Assembly (NCBI GenBank): GCA_903822595.1
Contig: CAIJPS010000083.1
Span: forward strand, 1 to 64,000
Length of the DNA stretch: 64,000 bases
Source of the DNA: an uncultured Chlorobiaceae bacterium
GTDB lineage: Bacteria > Bacteroidota > Chlorobiia > Chlorobiales > Chlorobiaceae
Direction of reading: 5' to 3'
Both the position numbers and the translations under genes were made by a program. Positions 25,240-32,935 of the stretch are shown piece by piece (position 1 is the first letter of the stretch; each line of letters opens with the position of its first letter). The notes below the pieces were generated by a model. That model did no database searches. It saw only the letters and a program-made list of their open reading frames with translations, and had not been told where the DNA came from.

Positions 25240-25265
25240 AAAGCCGGGAATACCCCGGCTTTTTG
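25240..25265 (+). terminator. Terminator after frr
   Basis: Stem AAAGCCGGG / CCCGGCTTT around a short loop, followed by T residues. Confidence 0.9.
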
Positions 25266-25273
25266 TATTTTTA

Positions 25274-25303
25274 TTGCCGTTTCCCGGGTATTTGCGCTAT
25301 AAT
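25274..25303 (+). promoter_or_regulatory. Promoter of the restriction-modification genes
   Basis: TTGCCG box, 18-base spacer and a perfect TATAAT, 22 bases before the first codon at 25326. This is the clearest sigma-70 promoter in the window. Confidence 0.7.
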
Positions 25304-25325
25304 GCACTCTTACTAAAAATTTCCG

Positions 25326-26207
25326 ATGAAAGCTCCGTTACAACCATTGGCAGAAGTCTTTGGATATCCGGTTCATGACCATTCCGCCAAAGCTCAACGC
25401 TACCGTGCACATCGGCTTTGCCCGTTCAACAACAAAATCCCGAACTGCACAAAAGACAAAGCAAAAAATCCTTTGGGTGTTTGCAGTATTATGCACAACA
25501 ACCATCCGGTCATAACCTGTCCGGTTAGATTTCGTGAAGATTGGCTGATTACCGATGATGCCGCTTCATTCTTTTTTGATGCATCAACCTCATGGAACTC
25601 CCTGACGGAGGTCAGACTGAACGATACACAAGGTAAATCCGCCGGAAATATTGACGTTGTCCTCGTGGCTTACGATAATAATGGCAAAGTAACCGATTTC
25701 GGAGCTCTTGAAATTCAGGCGGTTTACATTTCCGGAAACGTCAGGGAACCTTTCGAGCACTTCATGAAAGATACCTTGGCTCATGCTGATATGGACTGGA
25801 CAACTCAACCGAATTATCCACGACCGGACTACCTGTCATCTTCACGCAAGCGACTTGCTCCCCAGCTTCTGTTTAAAGGCGGCATCCTTAATACCTGGAA
25901 AAAGAGAACTGCCGTAGCAATTAACAAAAGCTTTTTCAATACACTCCCTCCGCTGAAACCGGTAAATAAATCAGAGGCTGATATTGCCTGGCTTATTTAC
26001 GATCTTGAGCTTGCTGCAGAAGATGGTGCGGAACGCTATCACCTCAAAAAAATTGACGAAATTTATACCGGATTTGAGTCGGCGTTGCTCTCGATTACTA
26101 CAGCCTCACCTGGAAATATGGATAATTTTATAAAACTCCTTCAGGAAAAGCTTGACGATCAGCTTGAAACTCCGCCAAACAACAAAACCATTGAGGGGCC
26201 ATTTTAG
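25326..26207 (+). CDS. NotI-family type II restriction endonuclease
   Basis: A 293-residue homologue of NotI. The N-terminal cysteine-rich element is recognisable (RLCPFNNKIPNCTKDKAKNP, then LGVCSI) and corresponds to the iron-Cys4 fold of NotI. The PD-(D/E)xK-like catalytic core reads GNIDVVLVAY and GALEIQAVY, matching the unusual D...ExQ catalytic triad of NotI. Reading continues normally to a stop next to the methylase start (one base between). It has its own promoter at 25274. The recognition sequence is not deducible from the protein. Confidence 0.85.
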   Translation: MKAPLQPLAEVFGYPVHDHSAKAQRYRAHRLCPFNNKIPNCTKDKAKNPLGVCSIMHNNHPVITCPVRFREDWLITDDAASFFFDASTSWNSLTEVRLNDTQGKSAGNIDVVLVAYDNNGKVTDFGALEIQAVYISGNVREPFEHFMKDTLAHADMDWTTQPNYPRPDYLSSSRKRLAPQLLFKGGILNTWKKRTAVAINKSFFNTLPPLKPVNKSEADIAWLIYDLELAAEDGAERYHLKKIDEIYTGFESALLSITTASPGNMDNFIKLLQEKLDDQLETPPNNKTIEGPF

Positions 26208-26208
26208 C

Positions 26209-27105
26209 ATGACGGTATCCCGACAACAATGTTTATTTGCTGAAATGAGTGAATCGGTTTGCCGCCCGAAACCGGTCAATGTAGCATCCGTTCCTCATCG
26301 GAGCCCGTTTCGTTATCCCGGTGGAAAAACATGGTTTGTTCCTGCATTCAGGAAGTGGATCAGCTCCATGCAAAACAAGCCCTCTCTGCTGATTGAACCT
26401 TTTGCAGGTGGGGGCACAATAAGCCTCACGGCTGTTTCTGAACACCTTGTTCAACATGCCATCATGGTTGAACTGGATGAAGAGATCGCCGCTGTATGGC
26501 ACTCAATCAGTAACGGTGATGGAGATTGGCTGGCAAAAAGAATCCTTGAATTCGATCTCACAAAAGAAAACGTCACCCATGAACTGCAAAAAACAGACGT
26601 GGATCTGAAAGAGAAAGCATTTCAGACTATCCTGAAAAACCGAACCTTTCACGGAGGTATTCTTGCCGAAGGAGCGGGATTTGTGAAACATGGCGAAAAT
26701 GGAAAGGGTCTCCGTTCACGCTGGTACCCGGCAACCCTTGCAAAACGATTTTCAAATCTCAACCAGATCGCGAAGGACATTACTTTTCTGCAGAAGGATG
26801 GCTTGAAAATCATAGAAGAATATGCGGAACATGAGGATGTTCTCTTTTTTATCGACCCGCCATATACCGCCGGAGGCAAAAAAGCTGGCAAACGCCTCTA
26901 CCGCCATTTTGAGCTTGACCATGAGCAACTCTTCAGGCTTTGCGAGTCAATCAAAGGCAATTTTTTAATGACGTACGACAATGCTGACGAAGTGAAGTTG
27001 TTGGCAAGCAAGCATGGATTCCAGACACGCCTTATTGCCATGAACAATACGCATCACGCCACCATGGAGGAACTGGTGATCGGAAAAGAGCTCTCGTGGC
27101 TGTAA
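26209..27105 (+). CDS. DNA adenine methylase, D12 class (Dam-like), cognate modification enzyme
   Basis: Transfers a methyl group to N6 of adenine. The SAM-binding motif is FRYPGGKTWFVPAFRKW, the acidic strand LLIEPFAGGGTISL follows, and the catalytic motif is FIDPPYTAGGKK. I use ATG 26209, directly after the endonuclease stop, with GAGGGG upstream; the frame is open further back inside the endonuclease gene. Length 298 residues is normal. Its pairing with a NotI-like enzyme, rather than with a GATC enzyme, is what makes it notable. Confidence 0.9.
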   Translation: MTVSRQQCLFAEMSESVCRPKPVNVASVPHRSPFRYPGGKTWFVPAFRKWISSMQNKPSLLIEPFAGGGTISLTAVSEHLVQHAIMVELDEEIAAVWHSISNGDGDWLAKRILEFDLTKENVTHELQKTDVDLKEKAFQTILKNRTFHGGILAEGAGFVKHGENGKGLRSRWYPATLAKRFSNLNQIAKDITFLQKDGLKIIEEYAEHEDVLFFIDPPYTAGGKKAGKRLYRHFELDHEQLFRLCESIKGNFLMTYDNADEVKLLASKHGFQTRLIAMNNTHHATMEELVIGKELSWL

Positions 27106-27147
27106 AGTTTCGCAGCGCTATAATCGGCTTCTGCAAGATACCCTGAT

Positions 27148-27226
27148 CACGCTTGATATCCTGGCCGAGGGTGTACGTGTACTCACGCGGAAAATCTTTG
27201 CAGTACTCAAAGATTTTCAGAATCAG
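27148..27226 (-). pseudogene. avd: Remnant of a DGR accessory gene (avd)
   Basis: About 27 codons on the reverse strand read LILKIFEYCKDFPREYTYTL followed by GQDIKRD, closely resembling the second helix of Avd/four-helix-bundle proteins of diversity-generating retroelements. The flanks of the same frame bear no resemblance to Avd, and the rest of the roughly 110-120 residue protein is missing. It lies immediately downstream of the variable-lectin gene, exactly where avd normally sits in a DGR cassette. The truncation point is close to the end of the methylase gene, so the restriction genes probably replaced the rest of the cassette. Confidence 0.72.
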
Positions 27227-27247
27227 ACAGGGGGCACGCCCCCTGTC
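27226..27247. repeat. GC-rich hairpin just downstream of the variable repeat
   Basis: Ten-base arms GACAGGGGGC and GCCCCCTGTC with a two-base loop, 35 bases past the stop codon of the adhesin. In studied DGRs (Bordetella phage BPP-1) a short-loop hairpin just after the variable repeat stimulates mutagenic homing. A terminator is the alternative, but there is no T-run. Confidence 0.55.
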
Positions 27248-27282
27248 AACCCCCACGGGAAAATTGTTAAAGAGATAAATGG

Positions 27283-27408
27283 CTAAAAAGCCCGCACAGC
27301 CCGAACCCGACCGTCGAGCGCCTTATTGCCCTGGAGCTGGTTCCCATTGTAGAAGGCCTCCCAGCACGCGCCACCCGCACCGACCTCCGTAGAACTCCAG
27401 TAGTAGTC
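27283..27408 (-). other. Candidate DGR variable repeat in the adhesin gene
   Basis: The last 41 codons of the adhesin carry the constant frame YYWSSTE ... RVRAVRAF. Between these, many codons end in C or T with arbitrary first and second bases (GTC GGT GCG GGT GGC, then GCC TTC TAC AAT, then CTC, GGC AAT, CTC GAC GGT). This is the footprint of AAC/AAT template codons changed at adenines by a DGR. No template repeat is present in the window, so the assignment is by pattern. Confidence 0.6.
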
Positions 27409-29787
27409 ACCCGCAAAACCGCCAACAACATTGTTTTGCATGTAGAGTTCATTCAACTCATCCTTGCTCGGCAGGAACCAGTCGGTGTAGCCTCCCCCTC
27501 CATATGCTTTTGCAATACCTGCTGCAAAATCGCTAACCTGGCCGTTTTGGGAAATAATTGCATCGGTATTAGCTTTTCCTGTGCCAATTCCGGTTCCAGC
27601 TGCCCCTGATGGGACTGATTTGAACAAATATAAAGGTGTTGCCCATGAAATTCCAGTGCTCTGGTCTGCTGTCGCCGCAATAAGGCCGTGCTTAACAGTG
27701 GGTGTAGATGGAGGAATATTGCCTTGTTGAAATCCCGACTCATTTACATAAAATACAATGCCGCCCTGATAGCTGTCGCCAATATCCACTTGGGCTGTCG
27801 ATGGGAATAGTGCCGTCACCACACCGGAGTCGGTCGAATTGGTGACTGATGTTGCTCCCGCTACCGTAAAGAAGTTTGCGGCAACTCCTGCCAGGGTAAA
27901 TCCTGGTTTCGGGAAAAGAGTAATTGTGGCCGTGTATGACGTATATGGACCAAATATGGTACCTGTTGGTGTTAAATCCCAGCTTACTGTCCCTGTGTAT
28001 TGTTCGGTCTCTGTGATTGTAGTTACCGGAGTCTCTCCCTTTACCGGCACTGTTACTCCGGGTATTGCGGCTATATTTACCACTTGCAACGTGATCGTAA
28101 AAGCCGGATTTGTCGTGGCCGTGGTCAAAATACCTGAACTCGCCATCAGCACCTTGTCGGTGCCAGCAAGATCGATGTTCACTCCCTTACCGGTAAAGTC
28201 GGCGACTCCATTGACAGCATTCATCGCAAGCGTACCGCCGAGGGTACCAGTACCTGTCGTCAGCGTCAACGTTATTAAGTCGGTGGCATCTGTTACCGTA
28301 TTGCCTGCCGCATCATGAACCGCCACGACAGGCTGCTGCGCAAAGGCTGCACCGCTGACAGTGCTGGCTGATGGCTGTGTCGTGAAGGCAAGCTTGCTGG
28401 CGGAGCCATTCGTTACAGTAATTACACCTGCCTCATCGATCAAGGAGCCTGACGCAGCTTGCACGGTGGCCGATCCTGTCAGGTGAGCAGTAAAGAGCGC
28501 ACTTTTGCCGTTGCCCGCTGCCACAAGGTCGCTACTAACCACTCCACCGGTAATGCCGGTCAGAGACCAAGTTGCTGCAACGTTGGCGACTACGTTGTTC
28601 AGTGCATCACGACTGATAGCGTATCCGGTAAAGGTTGTCCCTGATACCAGCGATTGAGCTGTGATTGCTGATCCGGAACCATCTGCCGCGGTTTCAATGG
28701 CAATCTGGCTGGCGGCTCCGGCGGTGCCGGTTGCCGTGAAGGTCAGCGGTGAACCACTCAGCCCTGTGCTTGTTGCTGTAAGGGTATTTGAACCTGCGGT
28801 GTTGCCACGCCTCCAGGTTCCTGCAAAGGTCGCTATACCATCCGATCCGGTTGTAGCAGTCATCGTCCCGCTGACGGAACCACCGGTACCATTCGCAAAG
28901 GTGACATCAACGCCGCTGACAGGGTTGTTGTTCGTATCCTTGACCTTCACACTCGGCGCGGTCGCCACAACTGAACCAACGGTGCCCGCTTGATTATCAC
29001 CAGCGTATACCGCTATCTGCGCTGCGGATCCGGCAGTGAGAGCAAACGGATTCGATATGGCTGCAACAAGATCGGTTGGCGTAAAGGTTAGCACAAAGTT
29101 GCCTGCGGTACCCGCTATGCTCAAATCGGTGAAGGTTGCCGTGCCACTGCTGTTGGTTGTTGCTGTGGCGTTGGTTAATATACCGGAGCCTGTGGTGATG
29201 GCTGCCACCACGAAAACACCGGAGGTGCGAACATTATTGCCATTCGCATCCTGAAGCTGCACAACTGGCTGGGTCGAAAGGGCTGTGCCACTCACCGCTC
29301 CCTCTGGCTGCGTTATCAGAACCACTTTTGTCGCTCTTCCTGCGCTGTAGGTTATGGTTGCTTCAGCCTGTGCATCGGTGCCACCTTTGACTGGTGCACC
29401 GGCAAGGGTGGCTACAAAAACTCCGCTGCCTGCCGTTCTGGGAGAGGTTACCCTGGCGCTATAGGTGCCGTTGCCATTATCGGTGACTGAACCAATAGAG
29501 CCTGTGCCGCTGGATTTTGTTATAGCAACATCGGCCCCGCCTGAGGCCATGTTGTTACCATTGGCATCTTTTACGGTCACCGTCAGTACCTGCGTACTGG
29601 TGCCGTCAGCCGTGATGGTGGCACTGCCGGGCGTCAGGGTAGAGTGTTCTGCGCTGTTTCCTTTCACAATGATGATACTTTCGATAGTCAGCGCATGGGC
29701 CAGGCCAAAGAGAGAGAGAAGAAGCATCCCGATGAAAAGGAGTGCTCTGGACGTTACCGTCAACTGTTTTTTTGCTGAAATGTCCAT
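27283..29787 (-). CDS. Exported adhesin with Ig-like (Big) repeats and a DUF1566/C-type-lectin-like variable domain
   Basis: An 834-residue surface protein. Residues 1-32 form a signal peptide (hydrophobic LLFIGMLLLSLFGLAHA). Five or so invasin-type Ig-like domains follow (repeated blocks such as VTVKDANGNNMASGGADVAI, GSVTDNGNGTYSARV, VAVHDAAGNTVTDATDLITL). Residues about 660-834 are a DUF1566-like lectin fold (GIVFYVNESGFQQGNIPPS, TDWFLPSKDELNELYMQ, YYWSST) that ends in the candidate variable repeat. The likely role is binding a variable ligand at the cell surface. It follows the beta-barrel gene by 20 bases on the same strand. Confidence 0.85.
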   Translation of the reverse strand: MDISAKKQLTVTSRALLFIGMLLLSLFGLAHALTIESIIIVKGNSAEHSTLTPGSATITADGTSTQVLTVTVKDANGNNMASGGADVAITKSSGTGSIGSVTDNGNGTYSARVTSPRTAGSGVFVATLAGAPVKGGTDAQAEATITYSAGRATKVVLITQPEGAVSGTALSTQPVVQLQDANGNNVRTSGVFVVAAITTGSGILTNATATTNSSGTATFTDLSIAGTAGNFVLTFTPTDLVAAISNPFALTAGSAAQIAVYAGDNQAGTVGSVVATAPSVKVKDTNNNPVSGVDVTFANGTGGSVSGTMTATTGSDGIATFAGTWRRGNTAGSNTLTATSTGLSGSPLTFTATGTAGAASQIAIETAADGSGSAITAQSLVSGTTFTGYAISRDALNNVVANVAATWSLTGITGGVVSSDLVAAGNGKSALFTAHLTGSATVQAASGSLIDEAGVITVTNGSASKLAFTTQPSASTVSGAAFAQQPVVAVHDAAGNTVTDATDLITLTLTTGTGTLGGTLAMNAVNGVADFTGKGVNIDLAGTDKVLMASSGILTTATTNPAFTITLQVVNIAAIPGVTVPVKGETPVTTITETEQYTGTVSWDLTPTGTIFGPYTSYTATITLFPKPGFTLAGVAANFFTVAGATSVTNSTDSGVVTALFPSTAQVDIGDSYQGGIVFYVNESGFQQGNIPPSTPTVKHGLIAATADQSTGISWATPLYLFKSVPSGAAGTGIGTGKANTDAIISQNGQVSDFAAGIAKAYGGGGYTDWFLPSKDELNELYMQNNVVGGFAGDYYWSSTEVGAGGACWEAFYNGNQLQGNKALDGRVRAVRAF

Positions 29788-29807
29788 AGTGGTATAAATG
29801 CCGCTGC

Positions 29808-31466
29808 TTATTTTTTGATATTGACGGTTATGAGCCAGGGTGTCGGGATGCCGTCAGTAACGGTGATTACCCAGCTATCACTGATACCTGTCGGTTCGGG
29901 AAGCTGCCTTGTATGGATAACCACCTGCGTTGGCGTGGTTGTGATCATTGCTGCATAACCATAAGGCGATCCGTTGCGTGTGACGCCGGTTATGACGGGC
30001 GTTCCGGTGCCGACCTTGATGAACACATCGCCATCACTGTTGAGGGTGGCTCCGCCTGGCAGCCCTGTTTTGCTGATGGTCGCTGCCAGAGTGACCGCAG
30101 TCGGATCAACCTTGGCAAGGAAGGAGTGCGGGAGTTGCGTCGGACGCAGGAGGGCATCGGCAAGCAGGTTTCCACTGTCGCTGCTGCGGGTTGGCTTCAT
30201 GCGTTGGGCAAGCGAGGTTTTCTGATTTCCTGCAGGCAGGGCAAGGCGACAACTCAGCAACATGCCATTATTGTCGGCAACGCCGTTTTGACCCTCGTTG
30301 TGAAACGCACTGAGCTGCCAGTTACCGGTTTCAGCCGTGATGCTGATGCGGTTCTCCCCTGCTCCCGATCGGTAGCCTGCACCAAAACAGAGCGAAGAAA
30401 AAGGTTCAGAAAAGAGGTCAAAAGCATAATAAACCTTTTGGCTGATTTCTCTGGTGCCGTCCGAGAAGGGGAAGCGGAGCTGTTCATAGCCAAGTGATCC
30501 TTTGAGAACCAGACTTGGAAGCAAGGCCACCTGTGCATCTGCGGCAGCACCAAGCAGCCTGCCCTCGGAGAGTTTGAGGGGGTCACTCATGACAAAATAG
30601 TCTGTGGCGGTTTGCCGCAGAAAAGAGCGGGGGCCATCGGAGTTTGACGTTTGATTCGCTTCTGCTCCCCATGCCGAGAGCCCTACGGATTGGAGTGTGC
30701 CGGTTTCTTCACTCTCGTTAAGAATGTATTGGGTTGCAAGGGAATAACTGAACTGTTCGAGATCGATGTTGGCCTCCCCCGACGGGAAATCAAAATTCTG
30801 GTTGCCCCATAGATAGCCGCCGGAGGCTTTAAAACGGAAACCGGAATCGGGAAGCTGCCAGATAGTGTTTACGACCAGATCCCTACGATCGTTAAAAAGG
30901 GCGATGGTGGAGCCGATGGCGAACGGCTTCCCTAACATGGTTGCAAGCTCAAGCTGGCCGCCAGCCATTGAGCTGCCGATTTGGGGCTTGAAAGAGCCAA
31001 AGCCCAGGCCCAGGGTGGCGATGCTCTGTTTGCCATGATACTTCAAGGAAGCCCTCTCTGGACTGATCGCACCGGTTACCGAGCCGTCAGCCAGTGCAAA
31101 GGGAGCGGAAGGGAGCAGGCTTGCAATGCCGGGTGTTGTTTGCCGGGTTTGAGCGTCCGGGTTACCGTTGGCGGTGTAATAGCTCATTCCCCCTGCTGTA
31201 CTTGCAACCATTGCGGCAAGATAACCGGACGCTCCTGCAAGCGGTTGTCCGGCGCCCTGCGACAGCGCTTCAGCAGTAATTGATTTTGAAAGATCCTTGG
31301 GATTGAGAACATATTCCTGCTGCTGGGCAAAAAGCGAAAGAGTAGTGCATAATGGCAAGACACCGAGTAAAACTACAGCAAGAGATACCTTGGTGACAAG
31401 GGATGACGCACAGGTCTTCCCGGTAGGGGAATGACCGCAAATCGGGCTATGGGGTACCATGAGCAA
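29808..31466 (-). CDS. Invasin/intimin-like outer-membrane beta-barrel protein
   Basis: A 552-residue exported protein. A signal peptide-like segment (KVSLAVVLLGVLPLCTTLSLFAQQ, about residues 27-50) is preceded by a longer N terminus, so a later start is possible. The body consists of alternating amphipathic strands (GLGFGSFKPQIGSSMAGGQL, SLATQYILNESEE, LVLKGSLGYEQLRFPF) and resembles the barrel of inverse autotransporters, with a C-terminal Ig-like or cadherin-like segment (ATISKTGLPGGATLNSDGDV). It lies directly upstream of the Ig-repeat adhesin and probably anchors or exports it. This partnership is inferred from gene order. Confidence 0.65.
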   Translation of the reverse strand: MLMVPHSPICGHSPTGKTCASSLVTKVSLAVVLLGVLPLCTTLSLFAQQQEYVLNPKDLSKSITAEALSQGAGQPLAGASGYLAAMVASTAGGMSYYTANGNPDAQTRQTTPGIASLLPSAPFALADGSVTGAISPERASLKYHGKQSIATLGLGFGSFKPQIGSSMAGGQLELATMLGKPFAIGSTIALFNDRRDLVVNTIWQLPDSGFRFKASGGYLWGNQNFDFPSGEANIDLEQFSYSLATQYILNESEETGTLQSVGLSAWGAEANQTSNSDGPRSFLRQTATDYFVMSDPLKLSEGRLLGAAADAQVALLPSLVLKGSLGYEQLRFPFSDGTREISQKVYYAFDLFSEPFSSLCFGAGYRSGAGENRISITAETGNWQLSAFHNEGQNGVADNNGMLLSCRLALPAGNQKTSLAQRMKPTRSSDSGNLLADALLRPTQLPHSFLAKVDPTAVTLAATISKTGLPGGATLNSDGDVFIKVGTGTPVITGVTRNGSPYGYAAMITTTPTQVVIHTRQLPEPTGISDSWVITVTDGIPTPWLITVNIKK

Positions 31467-31639
31467 AACTGTTAACGTTCAATGAAGCTGAAAAGAACTT
31501 TTTCCACTTTCACAACAATAACAATGCAGGAATTTACGTATTATTTTGGTCTTCGTCACACAGAATCGAACATCAGTTTATCTTTTTGCGAAAAAAGGGG
31601 GTAATATTTTTTCGGAATAAAACGGGAGATGTGACACAA

Positions 31640-31672
31640 AAAAGCCGGTAAACGTCTCTACCGGCTTTTCAG
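31640..31672 (-). terminator. Terminator downstream of bchY
   Basis: Arms AAAAGCCGGTA and TACCGGCTTTT around an eight-base loop, with A/T runs on both sides. It separates the bchY group from the surface-protein genes. Confidence 0.88.
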
Positions 31673-31699
31673 GATTGATGATGAACTGTTAAAGAGGCA

Positions 31700-32935
31700 T
31701 CATGCAAAATACTCCTTCATCCTGCGGAACACCTCTTTTTTGCCAAGCAGGCCACTGATCATGCCGAGCACCGTTGCGGCTCCGGCTGCAAAGAAGAGTG
31801 GACGGGCGGAGATGTTGTTGGTGTAGTAGATAGCCGGAATTCCCCGCTCCTTGGCAAAGCTGTCGAGCGAGGTGGTGCCGATAACGAGATCAGGTTCATA
31901 GTCAATCACCGCCTGCATATCCTCTTCAAGATACTTGCGGTAACGGATCTCGGTGCCGAGCATGGCAAGCACCTTGTGATCTTCCTCTCCAAGCGGCATC
32001 CTTGCAATGGAGGTGGAAGCATAGGGCACCTCAAGACCTGCCTCAAGCAGAAGACGGACCAGCGGCAGTTCATTGCCTTCGTAACCGGCAACAATCACCT
32101 TGCCTTTCAGGTGGCTGAACTGCGAAAGCACTGCACGGGTTTTCTGACTCTCCTCTTCGGCAACAGTCTGAACCGTCACGGGATCAAGATCAAGAGCCTC
32201 TCCGATGCGACCTATCCACTGCGCCGTTGCATTCGCCCCGATCGGGTTACCCTTGATCATCTTCACCCCCTTCTCTTCAAGCAGTGAAACCGTTCTCTCA
32301 TAAAAGGGATGCAGCACTGCACAGGCCTCAGCCTGACCTGCCTCGATATAATCTTCAAGTGCCGTACCGGGCAGCGTAATGACCGACTCGACACCGATTT
32401 TCTGGAGAACAGCTCCGATGGTCATGGCATCAACCGGAAAAATCTCACCCAGCACAACAAGTGATTTCACTTTTTGCGGGCCCTCAAAACGGCCAAACCG
32501 CTTCAGCAGAGTCGCAACGGCAACATCTTTTGCCTCCGGGTGCGTCCTGATCTGGAAGGCTGGCAGGCGCACCAGCAGCACCTCCGCATTGCCAGCCTTC
32601 CGGGGCAAAAGTTCCTCGGCGATTCCGGCAGTTTCAGCTACGCAGGTGCTCACCACAGGAATAAAGCGCACCGCCGGATCACGGGCAATCTCCTCTATGG
32701 TGCGGCGCACATCATCAATCATGGTTCCGCCTGAAATCTGGACATTCATCAGTTCAGGCGAGATGATCGATTTGCGCGCTGCATAAAAATGCGATACAAA
32801 GGTAAGCCCGTAAAGGCACCCCTGATCGGCAACCAGGCAAACCTGGACACCGTCGATTCTTGTCAGCACCCTCAGCCCACCGAACGCAGGACACATCGAC
32901 TGGGGATGCAACGCTTTACAGCCCTTTTGTTCCAT
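31700..32935 (-). CDS. bchY: Chlorophyllide a reductase, subunit BchY
   Basis: Subunit of the nitrogenase-like enzyme that reduces chlorophyllide a to bacteriochlorophyllide a on the way to bacteriochlorophyll a. The start region MCPAFGGLRVLTRIDGVQVC with LVADQGCLYGLTFVSHFYAA is characteristic, and SGGTMIDDVRR and IPVVSTCVAE provide conserved residues including the cluster cysteines. ATG 32935 gives 411 residues, as usual in Chlorobi. The start lies inside the end of the upstream HU-SPOR gene (20-base overlap), suggesting translational coupling. bchX and bchZ are not in the window. Confidence 0.94.
   Translation of the reverse strand: MEQKGCKALHPQSMCPAFGGLRVLTRIDGVQVCLVADQGCLYGLTFVSHFYAARKSIISPELMNVQISGGTMIDDVRRTIEEIARDPAVRFIPVVSTCVAETAGIAEELLPRKAGNAEVLLVRLPAFQIRTHPEAKDVAVATLLKRFGRFEGPQKVKSLVVLGEIFPVDAMTIGAVLQKIGVESVITLPGTALEDYIEAGQAEACAVLHPFYERTVSLLEEKGVKMIKGNPIGANATAQWIGRIGEALDLDPVTVQTVAEEESQKTRAVLSQFSHLKGKVIVAGYEGNELPLVRLLLEAGLEVPYASTSIARMPLGEEDHKVLAMLGTEIRYRKYLEEDMQAVIDYEPDLVIGTTSLDSFAKERGIPAIYYTNNISARPLFFAAGAATVLGMISGLLGKKEVFRRMKEYFA

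What the first reader, a model, noticed from the sequence alone, without database searches (positions are those of the whole stretch)
27148..27226. Avd remnant shows a DGR cassette was cut by the restriction genes
The 27-codon match to the Avd helix (FPREYTYTL then GQDIKRD) sits in the expected place after the target gene. The similarity stops within about 40 bases of the methylase stop at 27105. The simplest reading is that insertion of the restriction-modification pair deleted the rest of avd, the template and the reverse transcriptase.
Basis: partly seen in the sequence, partly recalled or inferred. Interest (0 to 1): 0.68.

Follow-up and report, generated by a model that had tools for sequence, protein, structure and literature searches.

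The report
Avd scar beside a satellite DGR target
A short scar of the avd gene really does sit next to a hypervariable-type gene in this green sulphur bacterium, but relatives show it is the usual leftover beside copied ("satellite") targets of a diversity-generating retroelement, probably older than the neighbouring restriction genes rather than caused by them.

Summary
Window 27147-27226 (-) is 89% identical over 80 nt to codons 16-42 of a 117-aa avd gene, intact in about 12 sister genomes in a target-avd-TR-RT cassette; that Avd matches bAvd (5e-19) and phage genes annotated Avd. The neighbouring gene (27283-29787) carries a real DGR variable region (A mismatches 31/54, non-A 19/101 against a sister TR) and a downstream hairpin.
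The causal claim is not supported. (1) In sister G011 the orthologous locus has no restriction genes (a toxin pair instead), yet avd similarity stops at the same nucleotide. (2) The window scar also lost its 5' end, against the hairpin, by a second deletion. (3) Truncated avd 5' pieces beside targets recur in the genus with other neighbours; in four genomes such targets differ from their own genome's TR mostly at adenines, so they are trans-diversified satellites. (4) In this genome no TR was found, and the cognate RT survives only as a C-terminal piece fused to avd codon 15 on another contig: the cassette broke there.
Best reading: an orphaned satellite target with an avd hitchhiker scar; the restriction pair arrived later at an insertion hotspot.

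The parts
27147..27226 (-). avd scar, codons 16-42 of a 117-codon avd; start codon side and 3' two thirds missing
   Evidence: blastn to intact avd of G046, 88.8% over 80 nt, E 5e-24
27226..27247 (-). GC-rich hairpin downstream of the VR (GACAGGGGGC-GT-GCCCCCTGTC), abutting the avd scar directly; counterpart of the DGR target-site hairpin/cruciform
   Evidence: sequence; DNA fold -12.2 kcal/mol, z -3.3, 9-bp stem and 4-nt loop; same hairpin behind other targets of the genome and in intact cassettes
27283..29787 (-). DGR target gene, 834 aa: Ig-like/invasin domains and a C-terminal Lcl_C (DUF1566) domain
   Evidence: Pfam Invasin_D3 1e-20, Big_1 1e-8, Lcl_C 7e-7, the last below its cut-off
27286..27430 (-). 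variable region (VR) at the 3' end of the target gene
   Evidence: match to sister TR; A mismatches 31/54 against non-A 19/101 versus G059 TR, p 2e-6
27106..27146 (.). junction filler between methylase stop and avd scar; no significant avd similarity
25294..25303 (+). left copy of a 10-bp direct repeat GCGCTATAAT flanking the restriction module
   Evidence: 14 of 4000 random segment pairs share 10 bp or more
27115..27124 (+). right copy of the direct repeat GCGCTATAAT, 22 nt short of the avd scar
25326..26207 (+). NotI-type restriction endonuclease gene; similarity to other genomes begins at or just after its start codon
   Evidence: Pfam NotI 1.4e-62
26209..27105 (+). D12-class adenine methyltransferase gene, C-terminus shorter than relatives (GKELSWL* against GKDLSWMDSYPAVHEPE...)
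   Evidence: Pfam 2e-12 (scanned from the upstream TTG at 26152)
29808..31466 (-). partner gene of the target, no Pfam family, found at this locus in G011 too
   Evidence: 78.7% identity to G011; no Pfam family

Best explanation
The window holds an orphaned satellite (remote) target of an Avd-type diversity-generating retroelement. The target gene, with its variable region and the downstream hairpin used as landing site, was copied or moved into the intergenic space after frr, carrying the first part of the adjoining avd gene as a passenger (shown: homology, position, VR signature; inferred: the copying). The passenger has no function and erodes: here its 3' part was already gone when the ancestor of this locus and of the G011 locus existed, and its 5' end was later deleted against the hairpin, perhaps at a 3-nt GTC match (deletion shown; timing and microhomology inferred). 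Satellites of this kind are diversified in trans by a complete cassette elsewhere, as the VR/TR comparison indicates in four sister genomes. In this genome that cassette broke on contig C74, leaving about 15 Lcl_C variable regions without a recognised TR or cognate RT. The restriction-modification pair is a later, separate insertion into a site that also received toxin genes in relatives.
For: Orthologous locus in G011 (frr piece, then PIN toxin and partner, decayed avd, hairpin, VR target, partner gene, Oxidored_nitro gene) has no restriction genes and its avd similarity also ends at avd nt 125. Window scar lacks avd nt 1-45 although G011 and other scars keep them. Avd 5' pieces of varied length beside Lcl_C targets in many genus genomes with other neighbours (AAA gene, DUF4351 gene tail and others); only one avd piece lacks the 5' end (G076), apart from the window's own. 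Satellites beside truncated avd differ from own-genome TR mainly at A: G059 22/54 against 3/103, G060 22/50 against 6/114, G048 30/52 against 14/103, G084 25/49 against 2/106. Own genome: four targets with avd scars (nt 1-45, 1-192, 1-72, 46-125), others with hairpin and no avd; cognate RT only residues 261-412, fused after avd codon 15 on C74; TR-like matches are coding VRs apart from a 26-nt match on C34. The closest sister at the locus, G013, has the empty site and, elsewhere, a target with a decayed avd start and no restriction genes beside it.
Against: The methylase C-terminus is trimmed at the same junction, so one event could have cut both genes. G011 is not the closest relative at this locus, and the closer G013 lacks the target, so vertical descent of the locus is assumed, not shown. 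The G011 avd is a frameshifted pseudogene of 72-74% identity, which blurs its exact end. A complete cassette could lie in an assembly gap (109 contigs, 97.6% complete).
Confidence: 0.74

Rival explanations
1. One reading: a full target-avd-TR-RT cassette stood here and insertion of the restriction-modification pair deleted the 3' part of avd, the TR and the RT.
For: avd similarity and methylase stop are 40 nt apart; the methylase C-terminus is trimmed relative to relatives; filler is unrelated to avd.
Against: Same avd endpoint in G011 without restriction genes; a 10-bp direct repeat flanks the module and lies outside the avd similarity; separate loss of avd 5' end; similar scars elsewhere with other neighbours.
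Confidence: 0.12
2. Later deletion: the restriction pair was inserted further away and a subsequent deletion between it and avd trimmed both the methylase C-terminus and the avd 3' part.
For: Both genes are truncated facing each other.
Against: G011 endpoint coincidence; the 46-nt filler and the direct repeat do not look like one clean deletion joint.
Confidence: 0.11
3. Chance resemblance, or a fragment of another four-helix-bundle gene rather than avd.
For: Curated models alone are below threshold.
Against: 88.8% nucleotide identity over 80 nt to avd in the same position behind hairpin and VR.
Confidence: 0.01

Closest known systems
Avd-type DGR cassettes (prototype Bordetella phage BPP-1: target, avd, TR, RT)
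   Same: Sister genomes hold the same gene order; the window has a VR and a GC-rich hairpin as described for BPP-1 target sites (PMC3240598).
   Different: Window locus has no intact avd, TR or RT; the targets of this family are Lcl_C proteins.
Remote/degenerate DGR loci of Thiohalocapsa PB-PSB1 (PMC10907252)
   Same: Duplicated targets, some best explained by diversification in trans, and degraded redundant DGR parts.
   Different: There transposons and MITE-like repeats degrade the parts; here the trace is a truncated avd of varied length, and in this genome the cognate cassette itself appears lost.
HRDC-type DGRs with FGE-sulfatase targets (contigs C28 and C63 of this genome)
   Same: DGR-like RT, accessory gene and target in one locus.
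   Different: Different accessory gene, RT about 35-39% identical to the Avd-type RT over aligned parts, different target family.

Membership tests
Avd (bAvd) gene family | Sequence similarity to Avd | tested here: met
   88.8% nt identity to an intact avd over codons 16-42; intact avd hits bAvd 5e-19
Avd (bAvd) gene family | Complete four-helix protein of about 117 aa with start codon | tested here: not met
   Only 27 codons, no start side, 3' part missing
Complete DGR cassette | Target VR differing from TR at adenines | tested here: met
   Against sister TRs: 31/54 A, 19/101 non-A, p 2e-6; no own-genome TR to compare
Complete DGR cassette | Hairpin downstream of VR | tested here: met
   27226-27247, z -3.3; shared with cassettes
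Complete DGR cassette | Template repeat | tested here: not met
   TR search of own genome finds coding VRs and one 26-nt match on C34; assembly gaps possible
Complete DGR cassette | Cognate reverse transcriptase | tested here: not met
   Only residues 261-412 of 419 on C74
Remote (satellite) DGR target | VR and landing site distant from RT, diversified in trans | tested here: inconclusive
   VR and hairpin present; trans diversification indicated in sister genomes with the same scar type, not in this genome

The most novel reading that the evidence does not exclude
Across the genus, Lcl_C targets have spread as movable landing sites (VR plus hairpin), many marked by an avd 5' scar of varied length; in this genome they have outlived their retroelement, leaving about 15 orphan variable regions that could be served again if a cassette were gained.
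Probability: 0.5. Interest if true: 0.5.

Novelty: new member of a known kind. Interest (0 to 1): 0.35.

Why it matters
An avd stub behind a target can be used as a marker of satellite DGR targets and of lost retroelements, and should not be read as proof of a cassette cut in place. The genus offers genomes with complete cassettes plus satellites next to genomes with satellites only, which makes the fate of orphan variable regions testable.

Tried and rejected
Pfam and NCBIfam scans of the 47-aa and 74-aa readings of the scar: uninformative. The 46-nt filler read in another frame (GYLAEADYSAAKL) looked like a four-helix C-terminus; no significant similarity to the avd remainder, TR or RT was found and the stretch is unique in the genus. 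The window RT at 114-1262 looked like a group II intron RT by eye and matched the DGR RT only weakly (31%, 2.9e-9), so it was not counted as the missing RT. C28 and C63 RTs are DGR-like but HRDC-type. TR coordinates for G054 were mis-set, so its A/non-A counts were not used. G053:C16 was left out as a truncation because the contig ends inside avd. Literature searches found no description of truncated avd as a satellite mark; the library holds open-licence papers only.

Full report
Observation. The minus strand of 27147-27226 encodes ILKIFEYCKDFPREYTYTLGQDIKRD. Curated models are too weak on so short a piece, but the own genome holds a second, longer copy on contig C74 and sister genomes hold intact genes. 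A search of 65 genomes of the genus finds about 12 with a complete or near-complete avd of about 117 codons and many with a truncated one. The intact gene hits Pfam bAvd and phage genes annotated as Avd. The window piece corresponds to codons 16-42.

Anatomy. The neighbouring gene (27283-29787, minus strand) has Ig-like/invasin domains and an Lcl_C-like C-terminus. Its 3' end aligns with the TR of sister cassettes, with mismatches concentrated at TR adenines (31/54 against 19/101 for G059; similar for G046, G048, G060, G084). Behind it lies a GC-rich hairpin at 27226-27247 like the hairpin that BPP-1 needs for efficient retrohoming (PMC3240598). In intact cassettes the order is VR, hairpin, avd start, avd, TR, RT. 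In the window the hairpin abuts avd codon 16 directly, so the avd start has been deleted, perhaps at a GTC match.

Did the restriction genes cut avd? The restriction module is a NotI-type endonuclease and a D12 methylase. Similarity to other genomes starts at or near the endonuclease start codon and ends near the methylase stop; the methylase lacks 6-15 residues of its relatives, so its right edge is trimmed. A 10-bp direct repeat GCGCTATAAT flanks the module at 25294 and 27115 (14 of 4000 random pairs are as good). Between the right repeat and the avd scar are 22 nt that resemble neither. In sister G011 the locus has a partial frr, a PIN toxin with an upstream partner gene, a frameshifted avd, the hairpin, the VR target, the partner gene (78.7% identity) and the Oxidored_nitro gene, but no restriction genes. 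Its avd similarity ends at avd nt 125, as in the window. G013 and G044 have the empty site; G029 has a BrnT-type toxin gene there. The most economical reading is that avd was already truncated before the restriction pair arrived. This rests on one sister of moderate distance and is not proof.

Recurrence. Scars of avd 5' ends occur beside other targets: nt 1-125 (or nearly) in G048, G054, G059, G060, G082, G084 and G083 with one shared junction ahead of a gene that in G059 is an AAA gene, nt 1-192 in G000:C74 and G079, and shorter or longer ones elsewhere. Only G076 holds an avd piece that lacks the 5' end, apart from the window's own. In G059, G060, G048 and G084 the target beside the scar differs from the TR of the same genome mostly at adenines, so these are best read as satellites served in trans.

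The own genome. Fifteen places match the TR as Lcl_C coding VRs (two lie on C20 and were not separated in my alignment); one further 26-nt match on C34 is too short to be a TR. Four targets carry avd scars, and others keep the hairpin without avd. The cognate RT survives only as residues 261-412, joined to avd codon 15 on C74, a deletion that must have removed any TR lying between. Two HRDC-type DGRs with FGE-sulfatase targets are also present. With 109 contigs a hidden complete cassette cannot be excluded.

Known context. Degenerate and trans-served DGR loci are known in Thiohalocapsa PB-PSB1 (PMC10907252). The present case is a new member of that kind, with an avd stub as its mark.

Noticed in passing
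25264-31700 and L070, L072, L071, L074: The space between frr and the Oxidored_nitro gene is an insertion hotspot: restriction pair plus target here, PIN toxin pair plus target in G011, BrnT-type toxin gene in G029, empty in G013 and G044.
   Followed up: partly
114-1262: Truncated reverse transcriptase that looks like a group II intron RT.
   Followed up: no
L016 and L017 (G000:C74): Cluster of protein-kinase and PP2C proteins with C-terminal Lcl_C variable regions; one VR is frameshifted.
   Followed up: partly
L018 and L019 (G000:C63, C28): Two HRDC-type DGR loci with FGE-sulfatase targets, one of them with a TIR domain.
   Followed up: partly
27099-27105: The methylase ends 6-15 residues earlier than its relatives; whether it is active is unknown.
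   Followed up: partly
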